NCBI RefSeq assembly: GCF_002939885.1
Contig: NZ_MDED01000027.1
Location: 1-62,016, forward strand
Length of the DNA stretch: 62,016 nt
From: Xanthomonas cucurbitae
Lineage (GTDB): Bacteria > Pseudomonadota > Gammaproteobacteria > Xanthomonadales > Xanthomonadaceae
Reading direction: 5' to 3'
Positions 36,398-62,016 of this stretch are shown piece by piece; the stretch's first letter is position 1, and every line of letters starts with the position of its first letter. The translations under genes and the position numbers were made by a program. The notes below the pieces were generated by a model that searched no databases, was not told the origin of the DNA, and was given only the letters and a program-made list of their open reading frames with translations.

Positions 36398-36447
36398 GGC
36401 ATGGGCTCCGTCGGGGGAGCCGCCGCAACGAGGCGGCGGCGGGGCGA

Positions 36448-39400
36448 TTACTGGGGGGTGCAGACCGCGTCCGGGTCGCCGGCATCGCAGGCCGGCTGCT
36501 GGTCGTCGGGCAGGCGCAGGCCGGGGCGAACCAGGCCGAACGCGCGATACGGCGTCCCGGAGCTGGACAGATCGACAAAGGCGATGGTGCGGTTGGCCGA
36601 ACTCTGCGCGCGACTGGCGAACGCAGAGGCCGGCACGTTGAAGCTGGAGCCGCCGCTCAGGTCCAGCAGGCCGCCAGCGGCGGTGGTGGCGTCGAAGTAG
36701 GCCGGTGGCGCGCCCACCATGCCGATGGTCTGCGACCCGCTGCCGATGAGGTAGATCGGGTCCTGCTGGGTGCCGATGCGGCCGGTGGCCGAGAAGCTGC
36801 CGGTGCCATCGCGCAGGGTGGCGCGGCCTTCCTGCAACAGATCGCCGCGCACCGACAGGAACAAGGCGCTGTTGCCGGCATCCACGCTGTAGACGCTGCC
36901 GTTGGCCCGCACCAGGGTGAGGGTGCCGGCGTTGGTCAGGCTGAAACCATTGCCGGCCGTGAAGTCGCCCAGGCGCACCACGCGGTTGTCGATGAAGGTG
37001 GCCGCATCGCCCAGCATGACCGGACCACCGGCACTGCCACTGAGCAGGTTGGTACCCAGCGTACTGCCGGCGCGCTGGTCAATGCCCGCTGTGGCCTGCA
37101 GCCAGGTGCTGGCACCGCTGAGCTGTCCATCCAGCAGCAACACCGCGCCACTGCCCAGCCGCAACAACGTGCCGCCATCCACGCGCCCGCTGACCTGCAG
37201 CGTGGTGGCGCTGAACACGTCCAGCCCCTGCGCGCTGACATCGGCCAAGGTGCCGATGCTGTTGCCGGCACCGGCGAGCGTGGCCGCACCGGCGGCGCTG
37301 CCGTTGAGCTGGCCGACACGCAGGCTGCCAGCGCGCTGGGTGATCGCACCGCCGCTATGCAGGCTGAGCGTGCCGGCCGTGGCGACATCGTGGCCGAGCA
37401 GCATGGCACCGCCGCTGGTCAACGCCACGGTGTTGCCGGTGATCGCGCCACTGCTGGACAGCTGTCCGCCGGCCTGCAGGTCCACCGCACCGCTGGATTG
37501 CACGGCGGCGGCCAGGGCGTTGCGATCGGCCAGGGCGATGCTGCCGCCGCTGGCCTGCACACTCCCCTGGAAATCGTTGCCGGCGTCGGTGAGCACGATG
37601 GCACCGGTGCCGGCGTCGAGCAGGCTGTTGCCGAGGACGGTCAAGGCGCCCTGCTGGGTGATACCGGCACCGGTTGCAGCCGGGCGCGCGATCGCCTGCG
37701 CGGTGACCCTGCCATTGTCGCTACCCGCAGCGGTGCCGCTACGCGCCAGCAGCGTGCCGCCGATACGGCCCTGGCCCAGGTTCAGGCCGGCACCGCTGGC
37801 CGCATCCAGCGCGCCGACGTCCAGGTTGCCCAGTGTCAGTGCGTTGCGATCGCGCACGCGGGTATCGCCGCCGCTCAGGCTGAGGATGGATTGGAAATCA
37901 TTGCCCGTATCGGCCAGAGCGATGGTTGCGCCGGCGCTATTGATGCGGCTGGCACCGGTGACGGTCAGCGCGCCGGTCTGGCTCACCGCACCGCCGTTGC
38001 TGGTGGCATCCAGATCGCCGTTGACCAGGCCAAAACCCAGGTTCAATGCACCGTTGCTGGTGACATTCAATGCGCCGGTGTCGAGTGCATCCAGGCTGAG
38101 CGCATTGGCATCGCGCACCCGCGTGGCGCCGCCGGTCAGGGCAAGCCCTCCCTGGAAATCGTTGCCCGCCGCATCCAGCACGATCGCGCCGCTGCCGGCA
38201 TCCACCACGCTGTTGCCGGCCACCTGCAACGTGCCCGCGCCCTGGGTGATGGCCGCGTTGGTGCTGCGCAGGCTCAGCGTGCCGCCGGCGGTGATGCCCT
38301 CGCCCAGCGCAATCCCGTTGGCACCGCTGAGCTGCACATCGCCACCGCGCACGGCGTGCGTGGTGGTGAGGACAGCGCCGCGCGCCGTGAGGCTGAGCGC
38401 GCCGGTACCGACATCGATCGCACTGGCAGGCAGCTGCAAGGCACCGCCGGCATCCAGCGACACCGAGGCATTGCCGCTGCTCTGCAAGGACGCCATCTGC
38501 AGATCGTTGCGATCCACCAACGCGATGCCGGAGGCGATCGCGTTCACTGCACCGGCGAAATCGTTACCGGCGTTGTCCAGCGCGATGGCGCCGTTGCCGG
38601 CATCGAGCGTGCTGGTGCCGCTGATGCGCAGTGCGCCTGCCTGGGTGATGCGGCCGCCGTTGCTGGTGGCGGTCAACGCGCCATCGACGCGGCCCTGGCC
38701 CAGATTCAGTGCGCCGTTGCTGGCGATGGTGAGTGCGCCGGTGTCCAGCGTGCCCAGGGTAAGCGCGGAGCCGGCCGTGAGCTCGGTCGCGCCACCGGTG
38801 AGGCTCACCGTGCCTGCGAAGGCATTGTTGCCGGTCAGCGTGATAGTGCCGGCGTCGGCACCGAGGCTGCCGGTGCTGCTATCGAAAGTTGTCGCGCCGC
38901 CCACGCTGAGCGCACCGCGTTGCACGATGTCGCCGCCGTTGCTGATGGCCGTCAGTGCACCGTCGCTGCGACCGCTACCCAGGCTGAGCGTGTCCTTCAC
39001 CGTCGCGTCCAGGGCACGTTCGTTGCTGGTTGCGCGCAGGCTGGTCACCGCAAAGGTCTCCAGGCTGAGTGCATTGCGATCGACGATCTGGCTCGCACCA
39101 CCGACAAGGCGCACTCCGCCCTGGAAGTCGTTGAACCGGTGGGTGAGCGTGATCGTTCCGGTACCGGCATCGATCATGCTGGCGCCACCCACCCCGATCG
39201 AAAAGGTCTGGCCGATCGCGCCGCCATTGCTGGTTGCACGCAAATCGCCACGCACGCCGGCCATTCCCAGGTCCAGCGCACCGGTGCTGGTCACCGTGAG
39301 GCGATCGGCGCCAACGTTGCCCAGCGTCAATGCATTACGGTCCACCAGCGTCACACCTTGTGAGAACACCGATAGCGCGCCGACGAAATCGTTGCCGACG

Positions 39401-42400
39401 TTGTCCAACCTGACGTCACCGGCGTTCGCTTCGATGACGCTGCTGCCTGAGACCACCAGTGGCCCCGTCTGCGACACCGAGCCGAACACGCTGCTCGCCG
39501 CCAGCGTACCGACCGTACCCTGGCCGAGATTGAGCGCACCCACCGTCGAGACATGCAGCTCTCCGACGTTGAGCATGCCCAGCGTCAGTGGCGTAGCGGT
39601 ACCAATCCGCGCCGCTGCCGCGTTGAGCGTGAGCTTGCCCGCCAGATCGTTGGCTGGATCGTTCAAGAAGATGGCGCCCGCGCCTGCGTCAAGCACAGCG
39701 TCACCAAGGACACGGAGCGAGCCGCCCTGCCTGATCGCACCGCCATTGCTGCGCGCCGACAGCGTGCCGGCGACGACGCCAACCCCCAGATTCAGATCGC
39801 CCTGGCTGGTGGCCTGCAGCGTGGAGGTGTCCAGCCGCCCCAGCGTCAATGCAGTGGCATCGGCAATCCCCACCGCGCCACCACGCAGCGAGACGGTTCC
39901 AGCGAAGTCGTTGCCTGGCGCTGTCAATGCAATGGTGCCCGCACCCGCATCGAACGAGGCATCGCCAGACACCGACAACGTGCCTGTCTGTGCGATGGCA
40001 CCGTTGGCGACGGCGGCGATGCTGCCCATGCGCGAGGTTGCCAGCGACAGCGCATGGGCATCGCGCAGTTGTACCGCACCGGCGGCCACGGCCACGGTGC
40101 CGCCGAAGTCGTTTCCGGCCTGGTTCAAGGTGACCGCGCCGGCGCCGGCGTCGATCACGCTGTTGCCGGCGATGACCAGTGCACCGGCCTGCCCGATGGC
40201 AGCACCGTTGCTGACCGCCAGCAGGCTGCCCGCACTGCCCTGGCCCAGATCCAGCTGCCCATGGCTGGTGACGTCGAGCGCGCCGGTGACGAACCGCTCC
40301 AGGGTGAGCAGGTTGGAATCCACGATCTGCGCGTTGCCCGCCGCCAGGGTGAGCGCACCGCGGAAATCATTGCCGTCGGAGTTCAGCACGAGCGCGCCGC
40401 TGCCGGCATCGACCGTACTGGTGCCAGTGACCAGCAACGCACCGGTCTGCGTCACGGCCCCGCCGTTGCTGGTGGCGACCAAGATGCCATCGATCGTGCC
40501 GCTGCCCAGGTTCAATGCGCCGTTGCTGGTGGCGGTGAGGTTGCCGGTGTTGAGCGTGCCCAGCGTCAACGCATTGCGGTCGTTGATGTTGGTGAGGCCG
40601 CCGCTGAGCGTGACGGCCTGCTGGAAGTCGTTGTTGCCGGTCAAGCTGATGGCGGCGGTGCCGGCGTTTGCACTGGTCGTCTCGCGCACCAGCAGTTGGC
40701 CGGCGGTCTGCTCGATCGCGGCATTGGCCGTGCGCAGGGTCAAGGTGTTGTTGGCGGTGATGTCGTGCGCAAGCGTCAGCCCGTCGCGGGCGTCGAGCAC
40801 GACATTGCCGCCGCTGAGGGCACCCTGGGTGGCCAGTGGACCGGCGTTTGCGGTCAGGGTCAGTCCACCGGTGCCGGCGGTGATCGCCGATGTCGGTAGC
40901 GTGATCGCCTGCGCGTTCAACACGATGTTGCCGCTGGTGTTGCCGGCGATCGAGGAGACCGTCAGCGTGTTGCGGTCGGTGAGGGCGATGCCGTTGCCGG
41001 TGGCGCCGACGGCGCCCTGGAACTCGTTGTCGGCATTCTCCAGCGTGATGCCAGCGCTGCCGGCATTCAACGTGCTGGTGCCGGTCACGGTCAGGCCGTT
41101 GGCCTGGGTGATTGCGCCACCGTTACTGGTGGCGGCCAGCGTGCCGGTAATGATGCCGCTGCCCAGGTTCAGTGCGCCGTTGCTGGTGGCAGTGAGGTTG
41201 CCGGTGTTGAGCGTGCCCAGCGTCAGCGCATTGCCATCGGTGATGCTGGTGAGGCCGCCGGTCAGCGCAACGGCTTGCTGGAAGTCGTTGTTGCCGGTGG
41301 TCAGGGTGATCGCGCCAGTGCCGGCATTGAGGCTGCTGGCATCGGTCACGGTCAGGCCGTTGGTCTGGGTGATCGCGCCATTGTTGCTGGTGGCGGTCAG
41401 TACGCCGGTGACCGTGCCGCTGCCCAGGTTCAGCGCGCCGTTGCTGAGGGCAGTGAGGTTGCCGGTGGTGAGCGTGCCCAGTGTCAACGTATTGCGGTCG
41501 GTCAGGCTGGTGAGGCCGCCGGTGAGCGTGACGGCCTGCTGGAAGTCGTTGTTGCCGCTCGTCAGCGTGATCGCGCCACTGCCGGCATTCAACGTGCTGG
41601 TGCCAGTCACGGTCAGGCCGTTGGACTGGGTGATTGCGCCACCGTTGCTGGTGGCGATCAAGCTGCCATTGATCGTGCCGCTGCCGAGGTTCAGTGCGCC
41701 CGTGCTGATGGCCGTAAGGTTGCCGGTGTTGAGCGTGCCCAGCGTCAACGCATTGCCGTTGGTGAGACTGGTCAGGCCGCCAGCGAGGCTGACGGCCTGC
41801 TGGAAGTGATTGTTGCCAGTCGTCAGCGTGATCGCGCCAGTGCCGGCATCGATGCTGCCAATCCCGGTCACGGTCAGGCCGTTGGACTGGGTGATCGCGC
41901 CATTGTTGCTGGCGGCGGTCAACGTTCCGGTGATCGTGCCGCTACCCAGATTCAATGCGCCAGTGCTGGTGGCGGTGAGGTTGCCGGTGTTGAGCGTGCC
42001 CAGCGCCAGCGCATCGCGATCGGTGATCTGCGCGACACCACCGGTCAGGGTCACTGCATTCTGGAAGTCGTTGTTGCCGCGGGTCAACGTGATCGCGCCA
42101 CTGCCGGCAGTGATGCTGCTGGCGCCGGTCACGGTCAGGCCGTCGGTCTGGGTGATCGCACCGTCGTTGCTGGTGGCGGTCAAGGTGCCGGTGATGGTGC
42201 CGCTACCCAGATTCAATGCGCCGTTGCTGATGGCGGTGAGGTTGCCGGTGGTGAGCGTGCCCAGCGTCAATGCATTGCCATTGGTGATGCTGGTGAGGCC
42301 ACCGTTGAGACTGACGGCCCGCTGGAAGTCATTGTTGCCGGTGGTCAGGGTGATCGCGCCAGTGCCGGCATCGATGCTGGCAATACCGGTCACGGTCAGG

Positions 42401-45400
42401 CCGTTGGACTGGGTAATCGCACCGTTGTTGCTGGTGCTGGTCAGCGTGCCGGTGATCGTGCCGCTGCCCAGGTTCAATGCACCGTTGCTGGTGACGATAA
42501 GGTTGCCGGTGTTGAGCGTGCCCAGCGTCAGCGTATTGCGGTCGGTGAGGCTGGTGGCGCCGCCGGTGAGCGTGACGGCCTGCTGGAAGTCGTTGTCGAG
42601 ACCGTTCAAGGTGATCGCACCGGCAGCGGTGGCCGTGGTGCCTGCTGCAACGTCGAGGTGCCCGGCAGTCTGGTTGATCGCGCCGGTGTCGCTGGTCAAT
42701 CCAAGCGTGCCGCGGGACTGGATCACATGCCGCAGATTCAGGCCGCTACCCGCGCGCAAGGTGAGGTTGTGACCAGCCAGCGAGCCGGCGGTGGTCAGCG
42801 CGCCACCCAGCGAGGTCAGGCTGAGATCGCCGGTGCCGGTCTCGATCGCCTGCGCGGGCAGCGTGAGTGTGTCGCCTGCCAGCAACGCGATGGCACCGTT
42901 GCCACCGTTGGTCAGCCCGGCCACCGTCAGGCTGTTGGCATCGCGCATCGTCAGCCCGTTGCCGGTCAGGCTGACTGCGCCCTGGAAATCGTTGTTCGCC
43001 TCCTCCAGCGTGATGGCAGCGCTGCCGGCATTGAAGGTGCTGGTGCCGGTCACGGTCAGGCCGTTGGATTGAGTGATCGCGCCATTGTTGCTGGTGGCGG
43101 TCAACGTGCCGGTGATCGTGCCACTGCCCAGGTTCAATGCGCCGTTGCTGGTGGCGGTGAGGTTGCCGGTGTTGAGCGTGCCCAGCGTCAATGCATTGCC
43201 GTTGGTGAGGCTGGTGAGGCCGCCAGCAAGGCCGACGGCCTGCTGGAAGTCATTGGTGCCGGTGGTCAGGGTGATCGCGCCAGTGCCGGCATCGATGCTG
43301 CCAATGCCGGTCACGGTCAGGCCGTTGGATTGGGTGATCGCGCCGTTGTTGCTGGCGGCGGTCAGCGTGCCGGTGATGGTGCCGCTGCCCAGGTCCAGCG
43401 CGCCATTGCTGAGGGCAGTGAGGTTGCCGGTGTTGAGCATGCCCAGCGCCAGCGCATCGCGATCGGTGATCTGCGCGACACCACCGGTCAGGGTCACTGC
43501 ATTCTGGAAGTCGTTGTTGCCACTGGTCAACGTGATCGCGCCACTGCCGGCATCGATGCTGCTGGCGCCGGTGACGGTCAGGCCGTTGGACTGGGTGATC
43601 GCACCGTTGTTGCTGATGGCGGTCAAGATGCCATCGATCGTGCCGCTGCCCAGGTTCAGTGCGCCGTTGCTGATGGCGGTGAGGTTGCCGGTGTTGAGCG
43701 CGCCCAGTGTCAATGTGTTGCGGTCGGTGATGCTGGTGGCACCACCGCTGAGGCTGACGGCCTGCAAAAACGCGTTGTTGGCGTTCAAGGTAATGGACGC
43801 GGTGCCGGCATTCAGCGCGCTGGTGCCGGTCACCAACAAGCCGTTGGACTGGGTGATTGCGCCGTTGTTGCTGGTCGCGGTCAGCGTGCCGACGATCGTG
43901 CCACCGCCCAGGTTCAGTGCGCCGCTGCTGCTGGCGGTCAGGCTGCCGGTATTGAGCGTCCCCAGCGTCAAGGTAGCGCGGTCGGTGATGCTGGTGGTGC
44001 CACCGCTGAGGCTGACGGCCTGCTGGAAGTCGTTGTCGCTATTGGTCAGCGTGATTGCCTGGCCGAGCGCATCGATGCTGCTGGTTCCGGTCACGGTCAA
44101 GCCGTTGGATTGGGTGATTGCGCCGTTGTTGCTGGTGGCGTTCAACGTGCCGGTGATGGTGCCGCTGCCCAGGTTCAGCGCGCCGTTGCTGATGACAGTG
44201 AAGTTGTCGGTATTGAGCGTGCCAAACGTCAACGCATTGCGGTCGGTGATGCTGGTGAGGCCACCGCTGAGGGTGACCGCCTGCTGGAAGTCGTTGTTGC
44301 CGGTCAAGGTGATGGCCGCAGTGCCGGCATTGACGCTGGTCGCATTGCGCACCAGCAGTTGCCCGGCGGTCTGCTCGATGGCGGCATTGGCCGTGCGCAG
44401 GGTGAGGGCGTTGTTGGCGGTGATGTCGTGCGCAAGCGTCAGCCCGTCGCGGGCATCGAGGACGACATTGCCGCCGCTGAGGGCACCCTGGGTGACCAGT
44501 GGACCGGCGCTGGCGGTCAGGGTCAGTCCACCGGTGCCGGCGGTGATCGCCGATGTCGGCAGCGTGATCGCCTGCGCGGTCAGCGCGATGTTGCCGCTGG
44601 TGTTGCCGGCAATCGAGGAGACCGTCAGCGTGTTGCGGTCGGTGAGGACGATGCCGTTGCCGGTGGCGCCGACGGCGCCCTGGAACTCGTTGTCGGCATT
44701 CTCCAGCGTGATGGCAGCGCTGCCGGCATTCAAGGTACTGGTGCCGGTCACGGTCAGGCCGTTGGACTGGGTGATCGCGCCGTTGTTGCTGGTGGCGGCC
44801 AGCGTGCCGGTGATGGTGCCGCTGCCCAGGTTCAATGCGCCGTTGCTGATGGCGGTGAGGTTGCCGGTATTGAGCGCGCCCAGTGTCAATGTACTGCGAT
44901 CGGTGAGGCTGGTGAGGCCGCCGGTCAGCGCGAGGGCCTGCTGGAAGTCGTTGTTGCCGTTGGTCAGCGTGATCGCGCCAGTGCCGGCATTCACTCTGCT
45001 GGCACCGGTCACGGTCAGGCCGTTGGTCTGGGTGATCGCGCCGTTGTTGCTGGTGGCGGTCAGCGTGGCGGTCAGCGTGCCGGTGATCGTGCCGCTGCCC
45101 AGGTTCAATGCACCGGTGCTGGTAGCGATGAGGTTGCCGGTGTTGAGCGTGCCCAGCGTCAGCGTACTGCGGTCGATGATGCTGGTGAGGCCGCCGGTGA
45201 GCGTGACTGCCTGCTCGAAGTGGTTGTTGCCGGTCAGGGTGATGGCGGCGGTGCCGGCATTCAAGGTGCTGGTGCCGGTGACGAAGAAGCCGTCGGTCTG
45301 GGTGATCGCACCGTTGTTGCTGGTGGCGTTCAGCCGGCCGACGATCGTGCCCCTGCCCAGGTTCAACGCACCGTTGCTGATGACGGTCAAGCCGTCGGTG

Positions 45401-48400
45401 ATGAGCGTGCCCAGCGTCAGGGCATTGCGGTCGGTGATGCTGGCGGCGCCACCGTTGAGGTTGACGGCCTGCTGGAAGTCATTGTCGCCGTTGGTCAGCG
45501 TGATCGCCTGACCGAGCGCATCGATTCTGCTGGTACCGGTCACGGTCAGGCCGTTGGACTGGCTGATCGCCCGGTTGTTACTGGCGGCGGTCAGCGTGCC
45601 GGTGATGGTGCCGCCGCCCAGGTTCAGCACGCCGTTGCTGATGGCGGTGAGGTTGCCGGTATTGAGCGTGCCCAGCGTCAGCGCATTGCGGTCGGTGAGG
45701 CTGGTGGCGCCGCCGCTGAGCGAGACAGCCTGCTGGAAGTCATTGTTGCCGTTGGTCAGCGTGATGGCCTGGCCAAGTGCATCGATGCTGCTGGTGCCGG
45801 TCACGGTCAGGCCGTTGGCCTGGGTGATTGCCCCGTTGTTGCTGGTGGCGGTCAATGTGCCGGTGATCGTGCCGCCGCCCAGGTTCAGTGCGCCGTTGCT
45901 GGTGGCGGTGAGATTGCCGGTGTTGAGCGTGCCCAGCGTCAATGCATTGCGGTCGGCGATCTGCGCTACACCGCCGGTCAGGGTCACTGCACTCCGGAAG
46001 TCGTTGTCGCCGGTCAAGGTGATGCCCGCAGCGCCGGCATTCAACGTGCTGGCACCGGTCACGGTCAGGCCGTTGGTCTGGTTGATTGCGCCACCGTTGC
46101 TGGTGGCGGTCAACGTGCCAGTGATCGTGCCGCCGCCCAGGTTCAGGTCGCCGTTACTGATGGCAGTGAGGTTGCCGGTGTTGAGCGCGCCCAGCGCCAG
46201 CGCATCGCGATCGGTGATCTGCGCGACACCGCCGGTCAGGGTCACTGCGTTCTGGAAGTCGTTGTCGACGGCGGTCAGCGTGATCGCGCCAGTGCCGGCA
46301 TTCACGCTGCTGGCATCGGTCACGGTCAGGCCATTGGCCTGGGTGATCGCGCCGTTGTTGCTGGTGGCGGTCAACGTGCCGGTGATGGTGCCGCTACCCA
46401 GATTCAGGTCGCCAGTGCTGGTGGCGGTGAGGTTGCCGGTGTTGAGCGTGCCCAGCGTCAATCGATTCCTGTCGGTGATGCTGATGGCACCGCCAGTGAG
46501 CGTCACTGGCTGCTCGAAGTCATTGTTGCGATTGGTCAGCGTGATCGCGCCGGTGCCGGCATCCAACGTGCTGGCGCCGGCGACGAACAGGTTGCTGGCC
46601 TGGGTGATCGCACCATTGTTGCTGGTGGCGTTCAGCCTGCCGAAGACCGTGCCCGTGCCCAGGGTCAGCACACCGTTGCTGGTGGCGTTGAGGCCGTTGA
46701 GCATGAGCCCGCCCAGCGTCAGTGCATTGCGGTCGGTGATGCTGGCGATGCTGCCGCTGAGGCTGACAGCCTGCTGGAAGTCGTTGTCGCCATTGGTCAG
46801 CGTGATCGCCTGGCCACGCGCATTGATGCTGCTGGTGCCGGTCACGGTCAGGCCGTTGGACTGGGTGATCGCCCAGCTGTTGCTGGCGGCGGTCAGCGTG
46901 CCGGTGATCGTGCCACCGCCCAGGTTCAGCACGCCCTCGCTGATGGCGGTGAGATTGCCGGTGTTGAGCGTGCCCAGCGTCAACGCATTGCCATCAGTGA
47001 TACTGGTGAGGCCGCCGGTCAGCGTGACGGCCTGCTGGAAATCGTTGTTGCCGGTCAGGGTGATGGCGGCGGTGCCGGCGTTTGCACTGGTCGTCTCGCG
47101 CACCAGCAATTGGCCGGCGGTCTGCTCGATCGCGGCATTGGCCGTGCGCAGGGTCAAGGTGTTGTTGGCGGTGATGTCGTGCGCAAGCGTCAGCCCGTCG
47201 CGGGCGTCGAGCACGACATTGCCGCCGCTGAGGGCACCCTGGGTGGCCAGTGGACCGGCGTTTGCGGTCAGGGTCAGTCCACCGGTGCCGGCGGTGATCG
47301 CCGATGTCGGTAGCGTGATCGCCTGCGCGGTCAGCGCGATGTTGCCGCTGGTGTTGCCGGCAATCGAGGAGACCGTCAGCGTGTTGCGGTCGGTGAGGGC
47401 GATGCCGTTGCCGGTGGCGCCGACGGCACCCTGGAACTCGTTGTCGGCATTCTCCAGCGTGATGCCAGCGCTGCCGGCATTCAACGTGCTGTTGCCGGTC
47501 ACGGTCAGGCCGTTGGCCTGGGTGATTGCGCCATTGTTGCTGGTGGCGGCCAGCGTACCAGTGATGGTGCCGCTGCCCAGGTTCAATGCGCCGTTACTGG
47601 TGGCGGTGAGGTTGCCGGTGTTGAGCGTGCCCAGTGTCAGCGCATTGCCATCGGCGATGCTGGTGAGGCCGCCGGTCAGCGCGACGGACTGCTGGAAGTC
47701 GTTGTTGCCGGTGGTCAGCGTGATCGCGCCACTGCCGGCATTGAGGCTACTTGCACCGGTCACGGTCAGGCCGTTGGCCTGGGTGATCGCACCGTTGTTG
47801 CTGGTGGCGGTCAGCGTGCCGGTGATGGTGCCGCTGCCCAGGTTCAACGCGCCAGTGCTGGCGGCGGTCAGGTTCCCGGTGGTCAGTTCGCCCAGCGTCA
47901 GCGCATTGCCATCGGTGATGCTGGTGGCACCGGCCTTGATGTTCACCGCTTTGACGAAGTCGTTGCTCGTAGTGTTCAGGGTGAGCGCATGGGACCCGAG
48001 CGCGAACGTACTGATCCCCTTCACCTGGAGGGCGGTGCCCTGACCGAGATCGCGCGCATTGGTCAGGCTCAGATCGCCGTCTATGAAGCCATTGATCTTG
48101 GCGATCTTGTTCTCGCCGGTGAGCAGCAGGTTTTTGCTGACGCTGGCAAACAGGTCGCCGGCGGTCAGGGTGCCGGTTTGCTGCACGCTGCCCTCAGTGA
48201 TATAGCTGATCGAGCCGCTGCCGACATTGATGCTGCCGCTGCCACCAATCGATGTTTCAGTGCTGCCATTGGCAACCAACGAGACATTGCCGTCCCTTCC
48301 GACATCGGACAGCGAAACAGCGCTGATGATGCCGCTGTTGTTGACGAGCTGGTTGAACAGCGCTCTGGCGGCGCTGGCCTGCAAGGTGATGGTACCGCCG

Positions 48401-49149: not shown

Positions 49150-49160
49150 GCGCAGATCCC

Positions 49161-50849
49161 TCAGAAAGTGAAGCCGAAACGCGTGTAGATACGGGCGTCG
49201 TCGCGACCATCGGAGGCGTTGCGGCGTCCGGTCGGCAGGGCGGCGGTGAGGCGCCATTCGAAATTGGCGTACTGCGGCAGGCGGAAGGTGAAACCCACAC
49301 CGGCGGCGTCGAAGGTCGCCGGCGCGGCTATCCCGTTGGACGCGTACACGCGGGCGTGGTCGGCGAACACGTCCAGCTCCAGCAGCTCGCGCCACGGGCG
49401 GCCGTTGAACGGCGAGGCGACATCGGCAAAACCCGGCGCATCGACGTGGTATTCCAACCCGGTGTAATAACCACGGTCGCCCAACGCATCGGAGACCGGA
49501 TAGGACCGCATGCTGTCCGGGCCACCGACGGCGAATTGCTCCAGCGGCGCCAGGGTGTTGTCGCTGTATTGGCCGCTGACCTTGAAATACAGGCGCTGGG
49601 TGCGGGTGAGGTACTGCAGGCGGGTGTAGGACAGCCGCGCCAGTGTGAAATGGCTGTCGCGATCGGGGGTGACCAGGTCCGGGTCGGCCGAGTCGTCGCG
49701 CAAGGCCTGGCGCACGCTGAGCTGCAACAGGTCCACCCCGCGCCAGCGCAGGTCGGTGCGGCGCAGCGAGGCGCCGAGTTCGGCCACGTCGAAGGACTGG
49801 TCCGAGAGCCGGGTGCCGGCCGCTTCGAGCCGCGAGGTTTCGCGCAGGTAGCGCGCCGATGCCTGCAGCTGCAGCAGATCCTGGTTGATGAATTTCCAGT
49901 CGGCGCCGGCATACACCACGGCTGTCGGTCCCCTGAGGCCAAGCCGGGCGAACAGGCCGTTGCGCACTTCCAGCTCGCTGCGGCTGGCGCCGACCACCGC
50001 ACTCAGGCCGGACACCTGGCCGATCGGCAAGGCGTATGACAACGCGCCGATCTGGCTTTGCCGCGGCGACAGCGAATAGGCGTAATTGGCCGCGAACACA
50101 TCGCCCAGGCCGAGCGGGCTGTTCCAGGTGATGCCCACCTGGGCGCGATAACGGCCGGTGAGTTCGGTACCGTAGTTGTTGCCGCCCAGGCTGATCGTGT
50201 ACGGGCGCGCGGCTTCGCTGGCGACCAGCACCACGTCGGTCTCGCCAGCGTTCTGGCCAGGCTGCAGCACCGAGGACAACGACACGCCGGGCAGGTCGCG
50301 CGTGTACAGCAAGGCGGTGTCCACGTCCTGCTTGCGCAGCGGGCGGCCCTGCAGCTGGCGCAAGGGCGCCGACAACGCGGTGCCACGATAACGCGCCGCG
50401 CCCTGCACGGTGATCTGGCCGATCCGTCCTTCGAGCATGCGGATCTCGATGAGGCGGTCCGCGCCCGGGGTTTGCGCCGGCAGGTAGGCGGTGCTGACGA
50501 TGAAGCCGGCGCTGCGATAGGCCTGGGTCACGGTGTCGGCCACCGCCTGCAGCTGGTCGAAGCGCAACGCCACTTCCGGCTGGCCCTGCGCCAGCGCGGC
50601 GAAGGCGGCATCGGCCACGGCCTGGATGCGCGCCGGGTCGATACCGGCGTCGGGGTAGTTGCCGACCTCGCGCACGCGGAAGCCGCGTACCGGCAGGGTT
50701 GCTGCGGCATCGCCGCGATCCTTCATGGCCGGCAGTGCGGCACCGCTGCCGGCAACCGGTGCTACGGAATCCTGCTGTCCCTGCGCCCAGCTGGGAACGG
50801 GCAGCAGCAGGCACGCGGACACCGCCGCGGCCAGACACGTCATACGCAT
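49161..50849 (-). CDS. Two-partner secretion outer-membrane transporter (TpsB, FhaC/ShlB-like)
   Basis: A 562-residue outer-membrane beta-barrel with signal peptide (MRMTCLAAAVSACLLLPVPSWAQ), two POTRA-like periplasmic domains (about residues 50-215, including RLIEIRMLEGRIGQITVQG), and a C-terminal 16-strand barrel ending in Phe. The barrel motif GGPDSMRSYP corresponds to the conserved VRGY/F-motif loop region, and the final GRDDARIYTRFGFTF is typical of the last strand. It should export the giant exoprotein encoded 11 bases downstream. AGGGG lies ahead of the ATG. The start overlaps the small membrane-protein gene by 10 bases, placing it in the T6SS gene string. Confidence 0.92.
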   Translation of the reverse strand: MRMTCLAAAVSACLLLPVPSWAQGQQDSVAPVAGSGAALPAMKDRGDAAATLPVRGFRVREVGNYPDAGIDPARIQAVADAAFAALAQGQPEVALRFDQLQAVADTVTQAYRSAGFIVSTAYLPAQTPGADRLIEIRMLEGRIGQITVQGAARYRGTALSAPLRQLQGRPLRKQDVDTALLYTRDLPGVSLSSVLQPGQNAGETDVVLVASEAARPYTISLGGNNYGTELTGRYRAQVGITWNSPLGLGDVFAANYAYSLSPRQSQIGALSYALPIGQVSGLSAVVGASRSELEVRNGLFARLGLRGPTAVVYAGADWKFINQDLLQLQASARYLRETSRLEAAGTRLSDQSFDVAELGASLRRTDLRWRGVDLLQLSVRQALRDDSADPDLVTPDRDSHFTLARLSYTRLQYLTRTQRLYFKVSGQYSDNTLAPLEQFAVGGPDSMRSYPVSDALGDRGYYTGLEYHVDAPGFADVASPFNGRPWRELLELDVFADHARVYASNGIAAPATFDAAGVGFTFRLPQYANFEWRLTAALPTGRRNASDGRDDARIYTRFGFTF

Positions 50850-51283
50850 TCGTCACTTACCCCTGAAAACATCCGCTGTCGCGCATGCCCGACGGCGTCG
50901 GCTGCGCATGCGGCAGTCTCGAGACCCGGGTGATGTTCGGCAGGCGGGCACTCACTCCTGACTGAACGTCGGTCGAACCCCAACGCACCTTCACGGAATA
51001 TTAGCAATATTAATGCAACGACGGTCACTGTTACGACGATTGCCACGTTACGACGACGGCGCTGGCTGAACCGGTTCGCTTGCCGGGGTGGGCGGGCGTA
51101 GGGGTCGGCCGGCCGCAGCGGCGGGTTGCGCAAGGTAGCGCCCTGCGCCTGCCGCGCGGCCTCCAGCACGCTGCGGCGGCGTGCGCGGTACTGCGCGCGG
51201 TCGAGCTGGCCGTGCTGATGCGCCTGCGCCAGGGCCTGCAGTTGCGCGTTGGCCGCGTGCTGCGTGGTGCCGTCGTGGCTCAT
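50840..51283 (-). CDS. Small single-pass membrane protein, SHOCT-like N-terminus
   Basis: A 147-residue protein that I cannot name. The N-terminus (NAQLQALAQAHQHGQLDRAQYRA is one continuous helix-turn; key residues Leu, Gly, Leu, Tyr, Arg) resembles SHOCT oligomerisation motifs. A basic stretch (QRRRR) precedes one transmembrane helix, VAIVVTVTVVALILLIF, about residues 80-96. The last 50 residues are Cys-containing and would be periplasmic. It overlaps the kinase gene stop (ATGA) on one side and the tpsB start (10 bases) on the other, so it is the physical bridge between T6SS and TPS genes. Confidence 0.65.
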   Translation of the reverse strand: MSHDGTTQHAANAQLQALAQAHQHGQLDRAQYRARRRSVLEAARQAQGATLRNPPLRPADPYARPPRQANRFSQRRRRNVAIVVTVTVVALILLIFREGALGFDRRSVRSECPPAEHHPGLETAACAADAVGHARQRMFSGVSDECV

Positions 51284-54200
51284 GGCAATTCCCGCAGCAC
51301 GCGAAAGCCCACATCCGGCTGCGCCGAGCCGTTGTCGCTACGGCTGGCCTGCACGGTGCAGTCGGACCAGTAGCTGGCAAAGCTGCCGCCGCGCGCCTGC
51401 ACCCCGGCGCCAGTGGAGACCCATTCCCAGACATTGCCGGTGAGGTTGATGAGGCCCCAGGGGTTGGCGTCGCGCCCGCGTGCGGAGACCGGCGCGCGCA
51501 CGGTGTCGCTGGCGCTGGCGGTGGGCGGCACGCAGTTGCTGTCTTCGGCCTGCCGCCAGTTGGCCCCGGCCTGCGCGGCATGCAGCCATTCGGCATCGCT
51601 GGGCAGGCGGTAGCGCCAGCCGCCGCTGCCGATGGTCAGCCAGCGCAGGTAGGCGCGGGCCTGGCTCAGGCTGATGTTGCGCACCGGCGCGCGGGCCAGC
51701 TCGGGGGTGCTGGCGGCCTGCGCGGTACAGCGGCCGGTGGCCTGGCAGAACAGGTTGAAGTCGGCCACCGCCACCTCGCCGCGCGATAGCGCATACGGCT
51801 TGCCGCCATCGCGGCCGGGCACCACCACCAGCATCGGCCCGCGGGTGTCGCCCAGGGTGTCGAAACAGGCCGCGCCACGGCCTGGCAGGCCGGCGCCGCC
51901 GCAGGGGTCCGGCCCGGTGGGCACCGGCGGCAGGCTGGCCTCGTCGTCCAGGCCGGCCGGCGCCGCGGCCGCGCCGGGAGCGCGCGGGATGGGCGCGGCG
52001 ACGCCCGGTTGGGCGCCGGGTTTGCCACGCGCCGGCCTGGCCGGGGCAGCCGCCGCCGGGTCGCCGGCACTGCCGGTCGGCACGCTGTCCGGCACGGGTG
52101 CGTCGCTGGCGGGCGCGCCTTGCAAACGGGCGGACAGCGCACCCTCGGGCAGTTGCCCGGCGGCCTTCATCTGCGCTTCCAGCTGCGCCATGGCCGTGGC
52201 ATCGCTGCGATACAGCGCCTGCAGGCGCTGGCCCAGTGGCCGACGCTCGGCGGCCGGCAGGTCGCCGGCCGCCATCACGGCGGCCACCACCGCATAGCGT
52301 TCCTGCGCCTGGCGCAGCTCGGCGCGCTGGCCCAGCCGCTGCTGGGCCTGGGCCAGCAAGTCGGCGGCCTGGGCATAGCGGCCCTTGGCGAAGGCGTCGT
52401 CGGCGGTGTTGCGGTACACCTGCGCCAGCAACTGCGGGCCTTCGCTGCGCAGCAGCGGGTGGTCCGGCTGCAGGCTGCGGATGCGCGCCAGCGCATCGGC
52501 GGTCTTGCCCAGATCGTTGGCGGCCGCGGCACGCCGCAGCGATTCCACCCGCCCGGCCAGTTCGGCCTCGGCGCTTTCGCGGGCCAGTGCCTGTTGCAGT
52601 TGCTGCTGCAGGGTCTGCAGGCGCGTGCGCTGGGCCAGCAAGGCGCCCGACTGCGGGACCAGGTCCAGGCCGAACGCCACCAGCGCCTGCGCGCCGGCCA
52701 GTTGCGCCGGATCGGCCTGCGCGGCCACCACGCCGGCGATGGCCTCGGCCACGGCGCTGCGCTGCGTGCTGCGCTCGGCCGGCGGCAACGCGGCCAGCGC
52801 GGCGGCCACGCGATCGCGCCAGGCCGGGTCGGTTGCCGGCTGTGCCAGGGCGGCTGCCAGCGCCTGGCGTGCGCCTGCGGCATCGAGCGGCGCGGTGGCG
52901 CGTGGGCGGCGCGCCTGCTGTTCGGCCACCTGCACCTCGGCGCTGCGCAACTGCAGGCGCAGCGCGTCCGGGAAGGCGGCGCGGGCCTGGTCGATCTGGT
53001 TGCGCGCGGTGGCCAGTTGCCCGGCAGCCACCGCCTGCGCGATGGCCTCGTCCAGCCGCACTTCCAGCGCCGAATGGCGCAGCAGGCTGCTCTGCGGATC
53101 GATGCGGCGCACCTGGTCCAGCGTGGCCAGCGCGTTGTCGGGTTGGCTGCGGAACAGCAGCCCGGCGTCGAGCTGGCGATTGAGCGCGGTGTCGAGCGCG
53201 TTGAGCCGTTCGTTCTTCTCGCGTTCCATGGTCTGGCGGCGCGCATCCAGCGACGGCGAGTACAGCCGCAGCCGGTCGCGCAGCGCAAAGACCTGCAATG
53301 CGCCGCGATAGTCGTCGCGGCCGTTGCCCGGATTCCATAGCGCATCCAGGCGACGCAGCAGGAAATCCTCGATCAGGTCGCTGCGGTCGGTGAGCAGGCG
53401 GCGGCGGTCGTCCGGCTCCAGGCTGGACAGCGCCTGCATGGCCTGGGTTTCGTCGCGATAGCGCTGCGGGTCCTGCGCGCCGAAGCGTGCGATCACCTCG
53501 GCCAAATGTTGCTGATGCAGATAGCGGTGGATGCCCCAGCCGCCCGTGCCCACCACCGCCAGTGCGGCGGCGCCGTAGCCGAGCAACGGCAGCGCGCGTT
53601 CGCGCAGTGGCACCTGGCGCAGGCCATCGAGCAACTGCTCCACCCGCTTCAGGCGATGCGTGGCCGGGAACGCCACCGCCGCGCACAGCGTGGCGTACTG
53701 GCGCCGGGTCAGGCCAGGCACCGGCGGCGGGCGGCGGCCTTCGCGCAGGGCCACCTCGGCACTGAGCTTGTCGAAGGGGTGCTTGCCGGTGAGCAGCTCG
53801 AAACACACGCAGCCCAGCGCGTACAGATCATCGGCCGGTGTCGGCGCCTGGCCGCGGATCATCTCCAGGCTGGCATAGGCCGGGGTCAGCGCGCCGAGCG
53901 TGGCGGCGTCGAACACGGTCTGCTCGCCGGCCACGTCGGCGGCGTGTTTGCCGGCGCGTGCGATACCGAAGTCGAACACCTTGGCCACGTTCTCGCGGGT
54001 GACCATGACATTGCCGGGCTTGAAGTCCGAATGCACCACACCGGCCGCATGCGCGCGGATCAGCGCGCGGCCCATGCCATCGATCAGCGGCCAGGCCTGC
54101 TTGAGCGGCATGCCGCTGTAGGCCTGCTCGCGGATCAGGGTCTTCAGGTCGCAGCCGTCGATGTACTCCATGGTCATGAAGACCAGGGTGCGGTCCTTGT

Positions 54201-54972
54201 CGAAGTCGTACACGCGCACGATGTTGTCGTGTGCCAGCTTCTGCGAGCGGCGCGCTTCGCGTTGCAGCGCCACCAGCGCATCGGGATGGCGGCGGAATTC
54301 GTCGCTGAGCACCTTCACCGCCAGCCACGGGTCGCGGTCGCGCGCTTCCACCTTGCGTTCGTCGCGTGCCAGGTACACCACGCCCATGCCGCCACGCCCG
54401 AGTTCGCGTTCCAGCAGGAAGCGGCCCTTGAGCAGGCTGCCGACGCTGGCGTGATCGCCGCCGGCCGCGTCGGCCAGTTGCTGCCAGCTGGACAGGCTGG
54501 CGGTGCCGGCCGTGCCGGTGCCGGTGCCAGTCCCAGTGCCGGTCTGGGTACCCAGACCGGTCTGCGTGCCCAGCCCCAGGCTGGTGAGGCTGGGCGCATC
54601 GCCGGGTAGCGGCTGCGCCGGTTGCACGCGGGTGATGTCCTCGTCGAGCACGCGCACGGCATCGCGGCGCGGCATCACCACGGTGGCGTCGTCGTCGATC
54701 GGCGTGGCTGGCGGCGGTGTCGATGGCGGCGCGGCGGCGGTGGGAGCGGCGGCGGTGCGCAAGGCATCCAGCCGGCGCACCAGGGTGGTGACGGTGGCAT
54801 CGTCCAGCAGCTGCTGGCGCTGCAGCTGCCACAGCGTTTCCACGCCATCGCGGTATTCGGCGTCCGGCATCGCCGCGCGCCTGCCCAGCGCGGCCAGCAC
54901 GGCCTCCAGGTCCAGCGCGCCGCGGCGCATGGCGGTGACCAGTTCGGTCACGGTGGCGGTGTCTTGGTGCAT
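51280..54972 (-). CDS. T6SS-associated Ser/Thr kinase fused to a formylglycine-generating-enzyme-like domain
   Basis: A 1230-residue membrane protein. Residues 1-183 are a linker with Pro/Ala and a Gly-Thr run (145-154). The Hanks-type kinase begins near 184 with GRGGMG (192-197), the VKV Lys, the catalytic loop HSDFKPGN (the usual HRD is HSD here) and the DFG motif. A transmembrane helix follows near residue 500 (LLGYGAAALAVVGTGGWGI), then a long Ala/Gln-rich coiled region of about 450 residues. A C-terminal FGE-sulfatase/SUMF1 domain ends the protein (RLPSDAEWLHAA; NLTGNVWEW; RGGSFASYW; DVGFRVLR). The kinase part corresponds to PpkA, which switches on T6SS by phosphorylating a forkhead-domain protein; the FHA protein is not in the window. 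The phosphatase gene follows the expected ppkA-pppA pairing. Confidence 0.88.
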   Translation of the reverse strand: MHQDTATVTELVTAMRRGALDLEAVLAALGRRAAMPDAEYRDGVETLWQLQRQQLLDDATVTTLVRRLDALRTAAAPTAAAPPSTPPPATPIDDDATVVMPRRDAVRVLDEDITRVQPAQPLPGDAPSLTSLGLGTQTGLGTQTGTGTGTGTGTAGTASLSSWQQLADAAGGDHASVGSLLKGRFLLERELGRGGMGVVYLARDERKVEARDRDPWLAVKVLSDEFRRHPDALVALQREARRSQKLAHDNIVRVYDFDKDRTLVFMTMEYIDGCDLKTLIREQAYSGMPLKQAWPLIDGMGRALIRAHAAGVVHSDFKPGNVMVTRENVAKVFDFGIARAGKHAADVAGEQTVFDAATLGALTPAYASLEMIRGQAPTPADDLYALGCVCFELLTGKHPFDKLSAEVALREGRRPPPVPGLTRRQYATLCAAVAFPATHRLKRVEQLLDGLRQVPLRERALPLLGYGAAALAVVGTGGWGIHRYLHQQHLAEVIARFGAQDPQRYRDETQAMQALSSLEPDDRRRLLTDRSDLIEDFLLRRLDALWNPGNGRDDYRGALQVFALRDRLRLYSPSLDARRQTMEREKNERLNALDTALNRQLDAGLLFRSQPDNALATLDQVRRIDPQSSLLRHSALEVRLDEAIAQAVAAGQLATARNQIDQARAAFPDALRLQLRSAEVQVAEQQARRPRATAPLDAAGARQALAAALAQPATDPAWRDRVAAALAALPPAERSTQRSAVAEAIAGVVAAQADPAQLAGAQALVAFGLDLVPQSGALLAQRTRLQTLQQQLQQALARESAEAELAGRVESLRRAAAANDLGKTADALARIRSLQPDHPLLRSEGPQLLAQVYRNTADDAFAKGRYAQAADLLAQAQQRLGQRAELRQAQERYAVVAAVMAAGDLPAAERRPLGQRLQALYRSDATAMAQLEAQMKAAGQLPEGALSARLQGAPASDAPVPDSVPTGSAGDPAAAAPARPARGKPGAQPGVAAPIPRAPGAAAAPAGLDDEASLPPVPTGPDPCGGAGLPGRGAACFDTLGDTRGPMLVVVPGRDGGKPYALSRGEVAVADFNLFCQATGRCTAQAASTPELARAPVRNISLSQARAYLRWLTIGSGGWRYRLPSDAEWLHAAQAGANWRQAEDSNCVPPTASASDTVRAPVSARGRDANPWGLINLTGNVWEWVSTGAGVQARGGSFASYWSDCTVQASRSDNGSAQPDVGFRVLRELP

Positions 54973-54976
54973 GCGG

Positions 54977-55693
54977 TCACTCCTGCAGGCTGACGACGAC
55001 GGCGGTGACGTTGTCGCGCGCCGCCCTGCCCATCGCCAGTTCGAACAAGCGCGCCAGCAGCGCGCGCGGATCGCCGAAGCGGTGGCATTCGGCATCCAGC
55101 TCCGGGTCGGGGATTTCCTTGTTGATGCCGTCGCTGCACAACACGAACTGCGTGCCGGGCAGGCTGGGGGTGAGCACCCAATCGACAAACAACGGTTCCT
55201 GCGCGCCCACCGCACGGGTGAGCACACCGGCTGCGGCGGCGGCGGCCTGGGCGCTGCCGAACTGGGTCACGTCCTCGCGCACGCCGTGCACGTGGTCGCG
55301 GGTGAGCTGGCGCAGCGGGCCGGCGTGGCGGGCGTAGATGCGGCTGTCGCCGACCCAGCCGCACAGCATGAAATCCGGGTCGTGCACCAGCACCACCACG
55401 GTGGTGGCGATCATGTCCACGCGGCGCTGCCGCGCGGCGTGCAGCAACTCGGCGTTGATCTGCGCCAGGGTGTCGTCGATGGCGTCCAGGAAGTCGCACA
55501 GGTCCGGCGGGCGCACCAGGGCGCCCAGCCGCTGCACCAGCAACTGGCTGGCGTAATCACCGGCGCTGTGGCCGCCCAGGCCATCGGCCACCACCCACAG
55601 CCCGGCCTCCTCGCGCACCAGCAGCGCGTCTTCGTTGAGGCGGCGCACCTTGCCCGTTTCGGTATGTCCGGCCGAGCGGTAGGGCGCGCTCAT
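54977..55693 (-). CDS. pppA: T6SS-associated PP2C-type protein phosphatase
   Basis: A 238-residue cytosolic phosphatase of the PPM/PP2C family. Metal-binding motifs are present: RRLNEDALL, VVADGLGGHSAGD, GWVGDSRIYA and the C-terminal ARDNVTAVVV. PppA reverses the PpkA phosphorylation and turns T6SS down. The gene ends four bases before the kinase gene, and its start overlaps the tagF stop by 4 bases. Length is normal for the family. Confidence 0.92.
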   Translation of the reverse strand: MSAPYRSAGHTETGKVRRLNEDALLVREEAGLWVVADGLGGHSAGDYASQLLVQRLGALVRPPDLCDFLDAIDDTLAQINAELLHAARQRRVDMIATTVVVLVHDPDFMLCGWVGDSRIYARHAGPLRQLTRDHVHGVREDVTQFGSAQAAAAAAGVLTRAVGAQEPLFVDWVLTPSLPGTQFVLCSDGINKEIPDPELDAECHRFGDPRALLARLFELAMGRAARDNVTAVVVSLQE

Positions 55694-56259
55694 CGGGTCA
55701 CCTCGGTGATGTCCTGTTCGGCCAGCAGCCAGTCCAGATAGCGTTCGGCGGCGGGCAGCCCGTGCAGCGACTGGGCGGTCTCGCCTGGACGCCACCACAG
55801 CGCGTGACCCTGCACGGGGGCCGGTGCGGTGGAGGGCGTGGCCGGTAGCGCGAGCGCGCACACGGCGGTCTCGAAACCGGCAGCGTTGGTGCGTGCGCGC
55901 AAGGCGCGGCCCAGGCAGGCGGCCAGCGCGCCGAACCACGCCGGCGCCGGGAGGCATGCGTGCGCCCACGGCATCGCCAGGGTCAGCGGAAAGCACCGCC
56001 CCACCCGGTCTTCGCCCGGACCGAGCACGCCGGCCCAGGCCTGCGGCCCGCATACGCCCGGCCCCAGCGCGAACGCACGCACGCCACTGCTGCGGTAGGC
56101 GGCGGGCCAACGCTCGCCCAGCGGCTGGCGAACCGCCTCCAGGCAGGCGGCAAAATGCGCATCCCAGGGCTGCACGAAGCCGGGCGGCAGGCGCCGCTGC
56201 ACGAAGTCGCCCACGCCGGGCAACTTGCCGTAGAAGCCGATCTGTTCGGTGGCCGACAT
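55690..56259 (-). CDS. tagF: T6SS-associated protein TagF
   Basis: A 189-residue cytosolic protein matching the TagF (BMA_A0400) family: GFYGKLPGVGDFVQRRLP at the N-terminus, then WDAHFAACLEAV and GPGEDRVGRCFPLTLAM. TagF restrains T6SS after assembly, acting with or beside the kinase/phosphatase pathway. Its ATG is two bases after the tssM stop, and it overlaps pppA by 4 bases. Confidence 0.9.
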   Translation of the reverse strand: MSATEQIGFYGKLPGVGDFVQRRLPPGFVQPWDAHFAACLEAVRQPLGERWPAAYRSSGVRAFALGPGVCGPQAWAGVLGPGEDRVGRCFPLTLAMPWAHACLPAPAWFGALAACLGRALRARTNAAGFETAVCALALPATPSTAPAPVQGHALWWRPGETAQSLHGLPAAERYLDWLLAEQDITEVTR

Positions 56260-56261
56260 GC

Positions 56262-61036: not shown

Positions 61037-61040
61037 GCGC

Positions 61041-61930: not shown

Positions 61931-62016
61931 GAGGGTGTTTACATAATGATATAATAGTGCCATCTCATCACAGACAGTCATCGAAATGGGCCGCCCACTG
62001 AAGATTCAAGTCGAAC
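61931..62016 (+). mobile_element. Partial insertion-sequence end
   Basis: The base composition changes sharply from GC-rich tssK to GAGGGTGTTTACATAATGAT and further AT-rich DNA. A transposase-like start follows within 56 bases, and the window ends inside it. The tssK frame is broken exactly at this boundary. The exact terminus, inverted repeat and target duplication cannot be defined from one end; the boundary is good to a few bases. Confidence 0.7.
61986..62016 (+). CDS. Start of a probable transposase gene (cut by window edge)
   Basis: Only the first ten codons are visible, MGRPLKIQVE. A short basic start of this kind (MxRPLKI) is common in transposases with an N-terminal helix-turn-helix, including IS630-type ones, but ten residues cannot prove a family. 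A TATAAT box at 61950-61955 lies ahead of the gene. Confidence 0.5.
   Translation, partial: MGRPLKIQVE

What the first reader, a model, noticed from the sequence alone, without database searches (positions are those of the whole stretch)
36448..55693. Two-partner secretion pair embedded inside a type VI secretion gene string
Seen: ten minus-strand genes follow each other with overlaps or gaps of 50 bases or less, in the order tssK' - tssL - tssM - tagF - pppA - ppkA-FGE - small membrane protein - tpsB - tpsA - tssA. The TPS pair interrupts the T6SS set, and tssA is left downstream of a 12.7-kb exoprotein gene. The bridging gene overlaps both neighbours. Inference: the giant adhesin and the contact-dependent T6SS may be co-expressed and co-regulated, with the adhesin holding cells together during T6SS firing, or the PpkA/PppA switch also acting on the TPS system.
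Basis: partly seen in the sequence, partly recalled or inferred. Interest (0 to 1): 0.7.

Follow-up and report, generated by a model that had tools for sequence, protein, structure and literature searches.

The report
Giant adhesin built into T6SS locus
In many Xanthomonas bacteria the genes for a very long surface adhesin and its exporter sit inside the gene string of a molecular spear gun of a kind known to protect such bacteria from amoebae, and in the genomes examined the two come together, so the adhesin may be the hand that holds the target while the gun fires.

Summary
Ten minus-strand genes, tssK'-tssL-tssM-tagF-pppA-ppkA-smp-tpsB-tpsA-tssA, follow each other with overlaps of 4-10 bases or gaps of 1-50. 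TpsA (4,233 aa) has a TPS domain, 39 DUF5649 repeats and a C-terminal two-cysteine motif like the HMW1 tether. It is no quirk of this strain: in 35 genomes of the genus, this T6SS type and tpsB occur in the same 15; in a 247-genome family sample, all 12 genomes with this tssK type have tpsB and the 4 with other tssK types do not. The order recurs outside the genus. A sister T6SS type (taken as i3***) lacks the pair and carries tssA convergently; an smp-like ORF follows ppkA there too, so smp probably belongs to the T6SS kinase module. The locus fits subtype i3*, the X. citri anti-amoeba T6SS. Best reading (0.45): a cell-tethered adhesin made with the T6SS that holds its target. Co-transcription, tethering and a role in T6SS delivery are inferred; kinase control of the TPS has no support. 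In this strain an insertion element interrupts tssK.

The parts
35357..36397 (-). tssA (346 aa)
   Evidence: TIGR03363 E 5e-93, ImpA_N E 4e-34
36398..36447 (-). 50-base tpsA-tssA gap with a G+C-rich hairpin and no T run
   Evidence: Gap 47-50 bases in the window and 9 of 10 named loci with tssA in view, 190 in Leaf148; stem kept in 11 of 11 aligned sequences; fold z -1.5, not significant
36448..49149 (-). tpsA, giant exoprotein of 4,233 aa, 409 kDa, two cysteines only, at 4221 and 4230
   Evidence: PF05860 TPS domain, TIGR01901, 39 stretches of DUF5649, C-terminal motif in 14 of 14 loci, N-terminus like EtpA
49161..50849 (-). tpsB, outer-membrane transporter (562 aa)
   Evidence: ShlB E 2e-28, POTRA_2 E 5e-8; like CdiB structures
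50840..51283 (-). smp, 147-aa protein with a weakly SHOCT-like N-terminus and one likely membrane span, probable partner of PpkA
   Evidence: No Pfam match at E 0.01; homologue P0016 matches SHOCT at E 1.8e-4, below the cut-off; named homologues only from Xanthomonas
51280..54966 (-). ppkA, Ser/Thr kinase with C-terminal FGE-sulfatase domain (1228 aa)
   Evidence: PF00069 E 3e-34, PF03781 E 2e-18
54977..55693 (-). pppA, PP2C phosphatase
   Evidence: PF13672 E 3e-18
55690..56265 (-). tagF
   Evidence: PF09867 E 4e-32, TIGR03373
56262..59789 (-). tssM (1175 aa)
   Evidence: IcmF family domains
59786..61039 (-). tssL, long form with OmpA domain
   Evidence: DotU E 5e-69, OmpA E 1e-9
61041..61931 (-). 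tssK', C-terminal part, interrupted by an insertion element
   Evidence: PF05936 positions 155-429, TIGR03353; break
61932..62016 (-). end of a multicopy insertion element at the contig end
   Evidence: About 90 bases repeated at 5 other places of the genome

Best explanation
Shown: this is a T6SS of the Xanthomonas i3* type whose locus has a complete two-partner secretion pair (tpsBA) as a standing part, between the ppkA-smp module and tssA. Inferred: the string is made as one transcript. TpsB exports TpsA; a disulphide loop at the TpsA C-terminus stays in the pore, so the rod of DUF5649 repeats remains fixed to the cell with its N-terminal end outward. Inferred: the rod is the grip arm of a contact-dependent T6SS. 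It binds a target, most likely a predatory amoeba, and keeps it in reach while EcfK/PknS turn on the genes and PpkA/PppA/TagF/Fha set off assembly. smp probably works with PpkA, not with the TPS pair.
For: Co-occurrence: smp, tpsB and this tssM type in the same 15 of 35 genomes of the genus; in the family sample 12 of 12 genomes with tssK of 70% identity or more have tpsB, 0 of 4 with other tssK types. Same order in 11 named loci and 3 loci outside the genus group. Linked TpsBs in one clade, 98/96 (clade also holds three rows of unknown linkage). Tether motif in 14 of 14 C-termini and no other cysteine in the window TpsA; a C-terminal disulphide loop anchors HMW1 (PMC5422565, PMC3297439, passages). 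N-terminus like the adhesin EtpA. ECF sigma factor and TPR kinase genes next to the rest of the T6SS on contig C60, as in X. citri, whose T6SS protects from Dictyostelium (PMC6653060, PMC13147305). Precedent: the giant TasL encoded in a T6SS island of Vibrio fischeri is needed for contact and killing (PMC9040878, passages).
Against: No expression, tethering or killing test. TpsB relatives at 45-54% occur in 6 of the 247 genomes without a tssK match, so such TPS pairs work without a T6SS. Within Xanthomonas, tpsB distances follow tssM only at r 0.55 (10 sequences; 0.92 with the three distant loci, 13 sequences), and the TpsA N-terminus at r 0.02: partly separate histories. tpsA is broken in Leaf148, phaseoli and codiaei and tpsB in dyei. 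A survey reports fhaBC in only 3 X. melonis isolates although its X. melonis genomes have the T6SS; which fhaBC is meant is unclear (PMC8734464, passages). A tssM deletion in X. perforans lowered an fhaB of unstated locus while ten i3* genes rose (PMC10782981).
Confidence: 0.45

Rival explanations
1. Shared regulation only: TpsA is a leaf-surface or biofilm adhesin needed in the same life stage as the T6SS, so one regulon serves both, but TpsA has no part in T6SS delivery.
For: FhaB-type adhesins of X. citri serve attachment and biofilm (PMC2632755, abstract and passages). The i3* T6SS matters on the leaf surface in X. perforans (PMC10782981, passages). TPS relatives exist without a T6SS match.
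Against: A general adhesin would be expected now and then without this T6SS; in the genus no tpsB at E <= 1e-20 was found outside the 15 genomes.
Confidence: 0.3
2. Hitchhiking: the pair entered the locus once and is kept by descent, because loss by deletion would harm tssA downstream; no functional tie.
For: Linked TpsBs form one clade. tpsA or tpsB is broken in 4 of the 11 named loci.
Against: tpsB is kept at 81-94% identity, about as well as tssM (mean difference 0.117 against 0.121), which speaks for selection on it.
Confidence: 0.15
3. Contact sensor: the tethered end of TpsA, TpsB or both report to the periplasmic part of PpkA or to smp, and so start T6SS assembly.
For: Position next to ppkA-smp; PpkA has a long part beyond its likely membrane span with an FGE domain at the end.
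Against: smp-like ORF and an FGE-like stretch (by eye) are also found with a T6SS that lacks the pair. No interaction evidence.
Confidence: 0.07
4. Contact-dependent inhibition (CdiB/CdiA): TpsA carries a C-terminal toxin.
For: TpsB matches CdiB structures by sequence.
Against: The C-terminus is conserved between species and ends in a tether motif; no VENN motif; no room for an immunity gene in the tpsA-tssA gap, 47-50 bases in most loci.
Confidence: 0.03

Closest known systems
X. citri T6SS (group 3, i3*; PpkA XAC4116, PppA XAC4117, PknS XAC4127)
   Same: T6SS type with tagF-pppA-ppkA-fha and ecfK-pknS. The window locus fits its species distribution (PMC9048695 Table 1). XAC4114, a ShlB-type protein (PMC2632755), would by order be its tpsB (inference; strain 306 was not read).
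   Different: The papers read in passages do not treat a TPS pair as part of the locus (figures and supplements not seen). In the window strain tssK is interrupted.
TasL of Vibrio fischeri T6SS2
   Same: Giant surface protein (over 380 kDa) encoded in a T6SS island, needed for contact (PMC9040878, passages).
   Different: TasL is a putative outer-membrane lipoprotein and acts in killing of bacteria; TpsA is exported by its own TpsB.
HMW1/HMW2 two-partner adhesins of Haemophilus
   Same: TPS domain, repeats, C-terminal cysteine pair near the end.
   Different: Much longer, DUF5649 repeats, and encoded within a T6SS string; no search was made for an HMW1C-type glycosyltransferase.
Sister T6SS type of Xanthomonas (taken as i3***)
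   Same: tssK-L-M-tagF-pppA-ppkA in the same order; smp-like ORF after ppkA in G008.
   Different: No TPS pair in the stretches read; tssA on the opposite strand.

Membership tests
Two-partner secretion (type Vb) | TpsB with POTRA domain and ShlB/FhaC family barrel | tested here: met
   PF08479 and PF03865 above cut-off
Two-partner secretion (type Vb) | TpsA with N-terminal TPS domain, gene next to tpsB | tested here: met
   PF05860 E 1e-24, TIGR01901, gap of 11 bases
Two-partner secretion (type Vb) | TpsB exports this TpsA | not testable with these tools
   Needs an experiment
HMW1-type tethered TpsA | C-terminal cysteine pair that forms a loop in the TpsB pore | tested here: inconclusive
   Cysteine pair in 14 of 14 loci; disulphide and retention not tested
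T6SS of Xanthomonas subtype i3* | tagF-pppA-ppkA-fha with ecfK-pknS in the same cluster | tested here: met
   the two contigs are put next to each other by a relative's DNA, not by assembly; subtype name by species table
T6SS of Xanthomonas subtype i3* | working machine | tested here: not met
   tssK interrupted in this strain; no second match to its C-terminal part. Other genomes have the gene without stops
CDI (CdiB/CdiA) | Variable C-terminal toxin with VENN-type junction and an immunity gene | tested here: not met
   Conserved C-terminus, no VENN, no gene in the gap
T6SS-associated contact protein (TasL-like role) | Gene within the T6SS locus and co-occurring with it | tested here: met
T6SS-associated contact protein (TasL-like role) | Loss abolishes contact and T6SS-dependent effect | not testable with these tools
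   Needs gene removal and a contact assay

The most novel reading that the evidence does not exclude
The i3* T6SS of Xanthomonas and its kin is a compound machine: a T6SS with an obligatory type Vb arm. The giant tethered TpsA is the dedicated grip that brings an amoeba into spear range, and its tethered end may report the grip to the kinase module. It would be the first T6SS found here or in the papers searched with its own two-partner adhesin, and would give the TpsB XAC4114, so far discussed as a possible transporter of a distant FhaB, its own substrate.
Probability: 0.25. Interest if true: 0.75.

Novelty: new variant of a known kind. Interest (0 to 1): 0.55.

Why it matters
How a contact-dependent T6SS meets its target is an open step, above all for systems that act on amoebae. 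If TpsA is the grip, one gene removal would separate contact from firing. The co-occurrence also says that surveys which list only T6SS core genes leave out a standing part of this locus, and that mutants upstream may affect tpsBA and tssA.

Tried and rejected
CDI reading rejected. smp as a TPS-specific bridge rejected, since an smp-like ORF follows ppkA in a T6SS without the pair (G008 only read, by eye; that ORF has no Pfam match). The FGE domain of PpkA as a TPS-specific sensor set aside: the PpkA of G008 ends in a similar stretch by eye (not scanned). The tpsA-tssA hairpin as an intrinsic terminator set aside for lack of a T run; its stem holds in 11 of 11 aligned sequences with one two-sided change by eye, the fold is not better than shuffles (z -1.5, 11 of 200 as good).

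Led nowhere: no TpsB relative at E 1e-30 among plasmids; PpkA hits on Burkholderia and Caballeronia replicons (4 records; 2 read) show no further gene of this string apart from a PP2C match in one; no match of the tssK/insertion end among plasmids. Linkage could not be seen for TpsB relatives known only as proteins (for example P0033 X. translucens, P0038 Lysobacter cavernae, P0082 S. maltophilia, P0090 Luteibacter and Dyella, Frateuria and Rhodanobacter rows; 120 of 336 rows were listed). Joint decay of tpsBA and T6SS genes: among the 11 named loci both sets are broken in phaseoli and dyei, TPS genes only in Leaf148 and codiaei, T6SS genes only in cissicola; too few, and base errors in the records are possible. 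G+C of tpsA (0.665) and tpsB (0.69) is near that of the window (0.682) and gives no sign of recent entry. No structure prediction was run.

Rows left out: L010 from the gap table; Leaf148 only by its last part, and L010 and the three loci outside the genus group left out; L012 left out of the tree; L007 and L012 left out (broken frames) and the three distant loci left out.
Full report
What is there. The window is a whole contig (C27) of a draft genome of 4.42 Mb in 181 contigs. Its genus is Xanthomonas: genus mates match named Xanthomonas contigs in length. From 61931 down to 35357 ten minus-strand genes follow each other: tssK' (C-terminal part), tssL, tssM, tagF, pppA, ppkA, a small membrane protein gene (smp), tpsB, tpsA, tssA. 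Junctions are a gap of 1, overlaps of 4, 4 and 4, a gap of 10, overlaps of 4 and 10, and gaps of 11 and 50 bases. The consensus scan found no terminator-like or promoter-like site at a junction: 8 terminator-like sites in 36000-55900 against 10.3 in shuffles, the only minus-strand one inside tpsA; both promoter-like sites (1.0 expected) lie inside tpsA. ECF-type promoters are not covered by that scan.

The proteins. TpsB has POTRA_2 and ShlB domains. TpsA has 4,233 residues, 409 kDa: a TPS domain (PF05860), 39 stretches of the repeat family DUF5649 with a period of 87 residues, and a conserved C-terminal region of about 400 residues. By sequence its N-terminus matches EtpA, a heme/hemopexin-binding protein and an adhesin (2odl, HMW1 as I recall) among solved structures. 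The whole protein holds two cysteines, at 4221 and 4230, and the motif ACDxxDPDAxC around them is found in 14 of 14 TpsA C-termini aligned: the window, 10 named loci and 3 loci outside the genus group. In HMW1 a C-terminal disulphide loop locks TpsA in its transporter, and the same is expected for HxuA (PMC5422565 and PMC3297439, passages). Retention on the cell is therefore likely, but not tested. TpsAs of relatives with an open frame through to the C-terminus have 2,377 to 2,824 residues (7 of the 11 named loci), so this strain has more repeats; assembly of repeats is a caution.

Co-occurrence in the genus. Of 35 genomes, 15 have smp at E <= 1e-3, 15 have tpsB at E <= 1e-20, and 20 have a tssM at E <= 1e-30, 15 of them of the window's type at 77% identity or more. 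The three sets of 15 are the same genomes. Five of the other 20 (G008, G009, G018, G029, G033) have another kind of T6SS only. The genomes are not independent, so I put no probability on this. In 15 of 15 loci ppkA, smp and tpsB are neighbours. The 11 named loci were found with TpsB as query, so they show order, not co-occurrence.

Co-occurrence in the family. In a sample of 247 genomes, 18 have tpsB at E <= 1e-40 and 16 have tssK at E <= 1e-50. The 12 genomes with tssK of 70% identity or more all have tpsB; the other 4 (G008 at 64%, G055, G147 and G242 near 50%) have none at that threshold. Outside the genus group the linked cases are G164, G213 and G062; their order tssK-L-M-tagF-pppA-ppkA-(smp)-tpsB-tpsA-tssA was read directly. 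Six genomes (G040, G086, G091, G117, G182, G190) have a TpsB relative of 45-54% without a tssK match, and G164 has a second one; no gene of the T6SS string was found in the flanks fetched (both sides, except one side for G117 and the second copy of G164). A class-wide sample of 369 genomes gave tpsB at E <= 1e-90 only in the window's genome and G062. A tree of 33 TpsBs puts the linked ones in one clade with 98/96 support; that clade also holds P0033, P0038 and P0082, whose gene neighbours are unknown. Order-wide searches failed.

The comparison that places the small gene. A sister T6SS type (tssM 47-48% identical; G008, G016, G024, G033; taken as i3*** from the literature) has tssL-M-tagF-pppA-ppkA in the same order (tssK too where in view), then tssA on the opposite strand, and no match to tpsB or to the TpsA ends in the stretches read. 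Downstream of ppkA in G008, overlapping its stop codon, lies an ORF with the make-up of smp: charged N-terminus with a similar motif and one membrane span near the C-terminus (by eye, no Pfam match). Its PpkA also ends in an FGE-like stretch by eye. So smp and the FGE-bearing PpkA probably come with the T6SS, and tpsBA is what i3* has in addition.

Which T6SS this is. The species that hold the locus (floridensis, melonis, phaseoli, euvesicatoria, cissicola, maliensis, codiaei, dyei) fit i3* in Table 1 of PMC9048695 (section read). Contig C60 of the same genome carries an ECF sigma factor, a kinase with TPR repeats, VgrG domains and an FHA protein beside the rest of tssK, as ecfK-pknS do in X. 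citri. There PpkA is XAC4116, PppA XAC4117 and PknS XAC4127, all in the anti-amoeba cluster (PMC13147305, passages). The X. citri system gives resistance to Dictyostelium and no advantage against other Gram-negative bacteria (PMC6653060, section 3 part 1). XAC4114 was noted in 2009 as a ShlB-type TpsB far from fhaB that might serve XacFhaB (PMC2632755, passages), and is called a filamentous hemagglutinin elsewhere (PMC3838355, passages). By order it would be the TpsB described here; that is an inference, since X. citri 306 was not read.

What is in print. Ten paper searches were made. In the main texts of PMC7788950, PMC9048695, PMC6653060 and PMC13147305 'hemagglutinin' has no hit; 'two-partner' was asked in PMC9048695 and PMC6653060 only and has none; PMC6653060 has 'adhesin' once, in a table row for X. 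citri 306. Figures and supplements were not seen, so the pair may be drawn or listed there. Of the papers cited, I read sections 13 of PMC7788950, 6 and 14 of PMC9048695, part of section 3 of PMC6653060 and section 10 of PMC10782981; of the others I saw passages only.

Against the reading. tpsA frames are broken in Leaf148, phaseoli and codiaei and that of tpsB in dyei; T6SS genes are broken in phaseoli (tssM, ppkA), cissicola (tssL, tssA) and dyei (tssL) (11 named loci, tssL only in part). Within Xanthomonas (10 sequences; 9 for the TpsA C-terminus, whose locus L010 ends early) tpsB distances follow those of the TpsA C-terminus (r 0.95) better than those of tssM (0.55), while tssM follows pppA, ppkA and tagF at 0.95-0.96, and the first 300 residues of TpsA follow tssM at 0.02. 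With the three distant loci tpsB and tssM agree at 0.92 (13 sequences). The TPS block has thus probably been exchanged in part by recombination at its place, and the end that would point outward is variable (mean difference 0.29 against 0.12 for TpsB). That fits an adhesin tip but shows no link to the T6SS. PMC8734464 (passages) reports fhaBC in only 3 X. melonis isolates although its X. melonis genomes have the T6SS; which fhaBC was meant is unclear. PMC10782981 reports a lowered fhaB of unstated locus in an i3* tssM deletion while ten i3* genes rose.

This strain. The window ends in an insertion element: about 85-90 bases that recur at 5 other places. The matches of contig C60 and of the window to a relative's tssK overlap by 5 bases, as a target-site duplication would. 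tssK is interrupted, and genes downstream may be affected. A search of this genome with the C-terminal part of TssK found one match only, so the T6SS of this strain is probably inactive.

Verdict. The mechanism, a tethered giant adhesin as the grip of an anti-amoeba T6SS, is an inference with a precedent in TasL (PMC9040878, passages) and no direct test.

Noticed in passing
121-2129: CRISPR array with 34 matches to CRISPR-DR4 (28-base repeat, about 60-base period).
   Followed up: no
31853-31967: sRNA sX13 of Xanthomonadaceae on the minus strand, beyond polA at the tssA end of the string.
   Followed up: no
36398-36447: Hairpin in the tpsA-tssA gap without a T run, kept in 11 of 11 aligned Xanthomonas sequences with a two-sided change in X. 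melonis by eye; role unknown. Two of the three loci outside the genus group have another stem there by eye.
   Followed up: partly
L003, tpsA-tssA gap; L046 about 15600-15760: Leaf148 has about 140 extra bases in the gap with imperfect inverted ends; a stretch after the smp-like ORF of G008 looks similar by eye. A pattern search found the end only in L046.
   Followed up: partly
61932-62016: End of a multicopy insertion element of unidentified family, with 5 more matches in the genome.
   Followed up: partly
L077 5081-6904: ORF of 607 aa with TPR and methyltransferase domains between the pknS-like kinase and vgrG on contig C60.
   Followed up: no
47950-49149: The TPS-domain end of TpsA is more variable and follows a different history than the rest of the locus (10 sequences), possibly by recombination.
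   Followed up: partly
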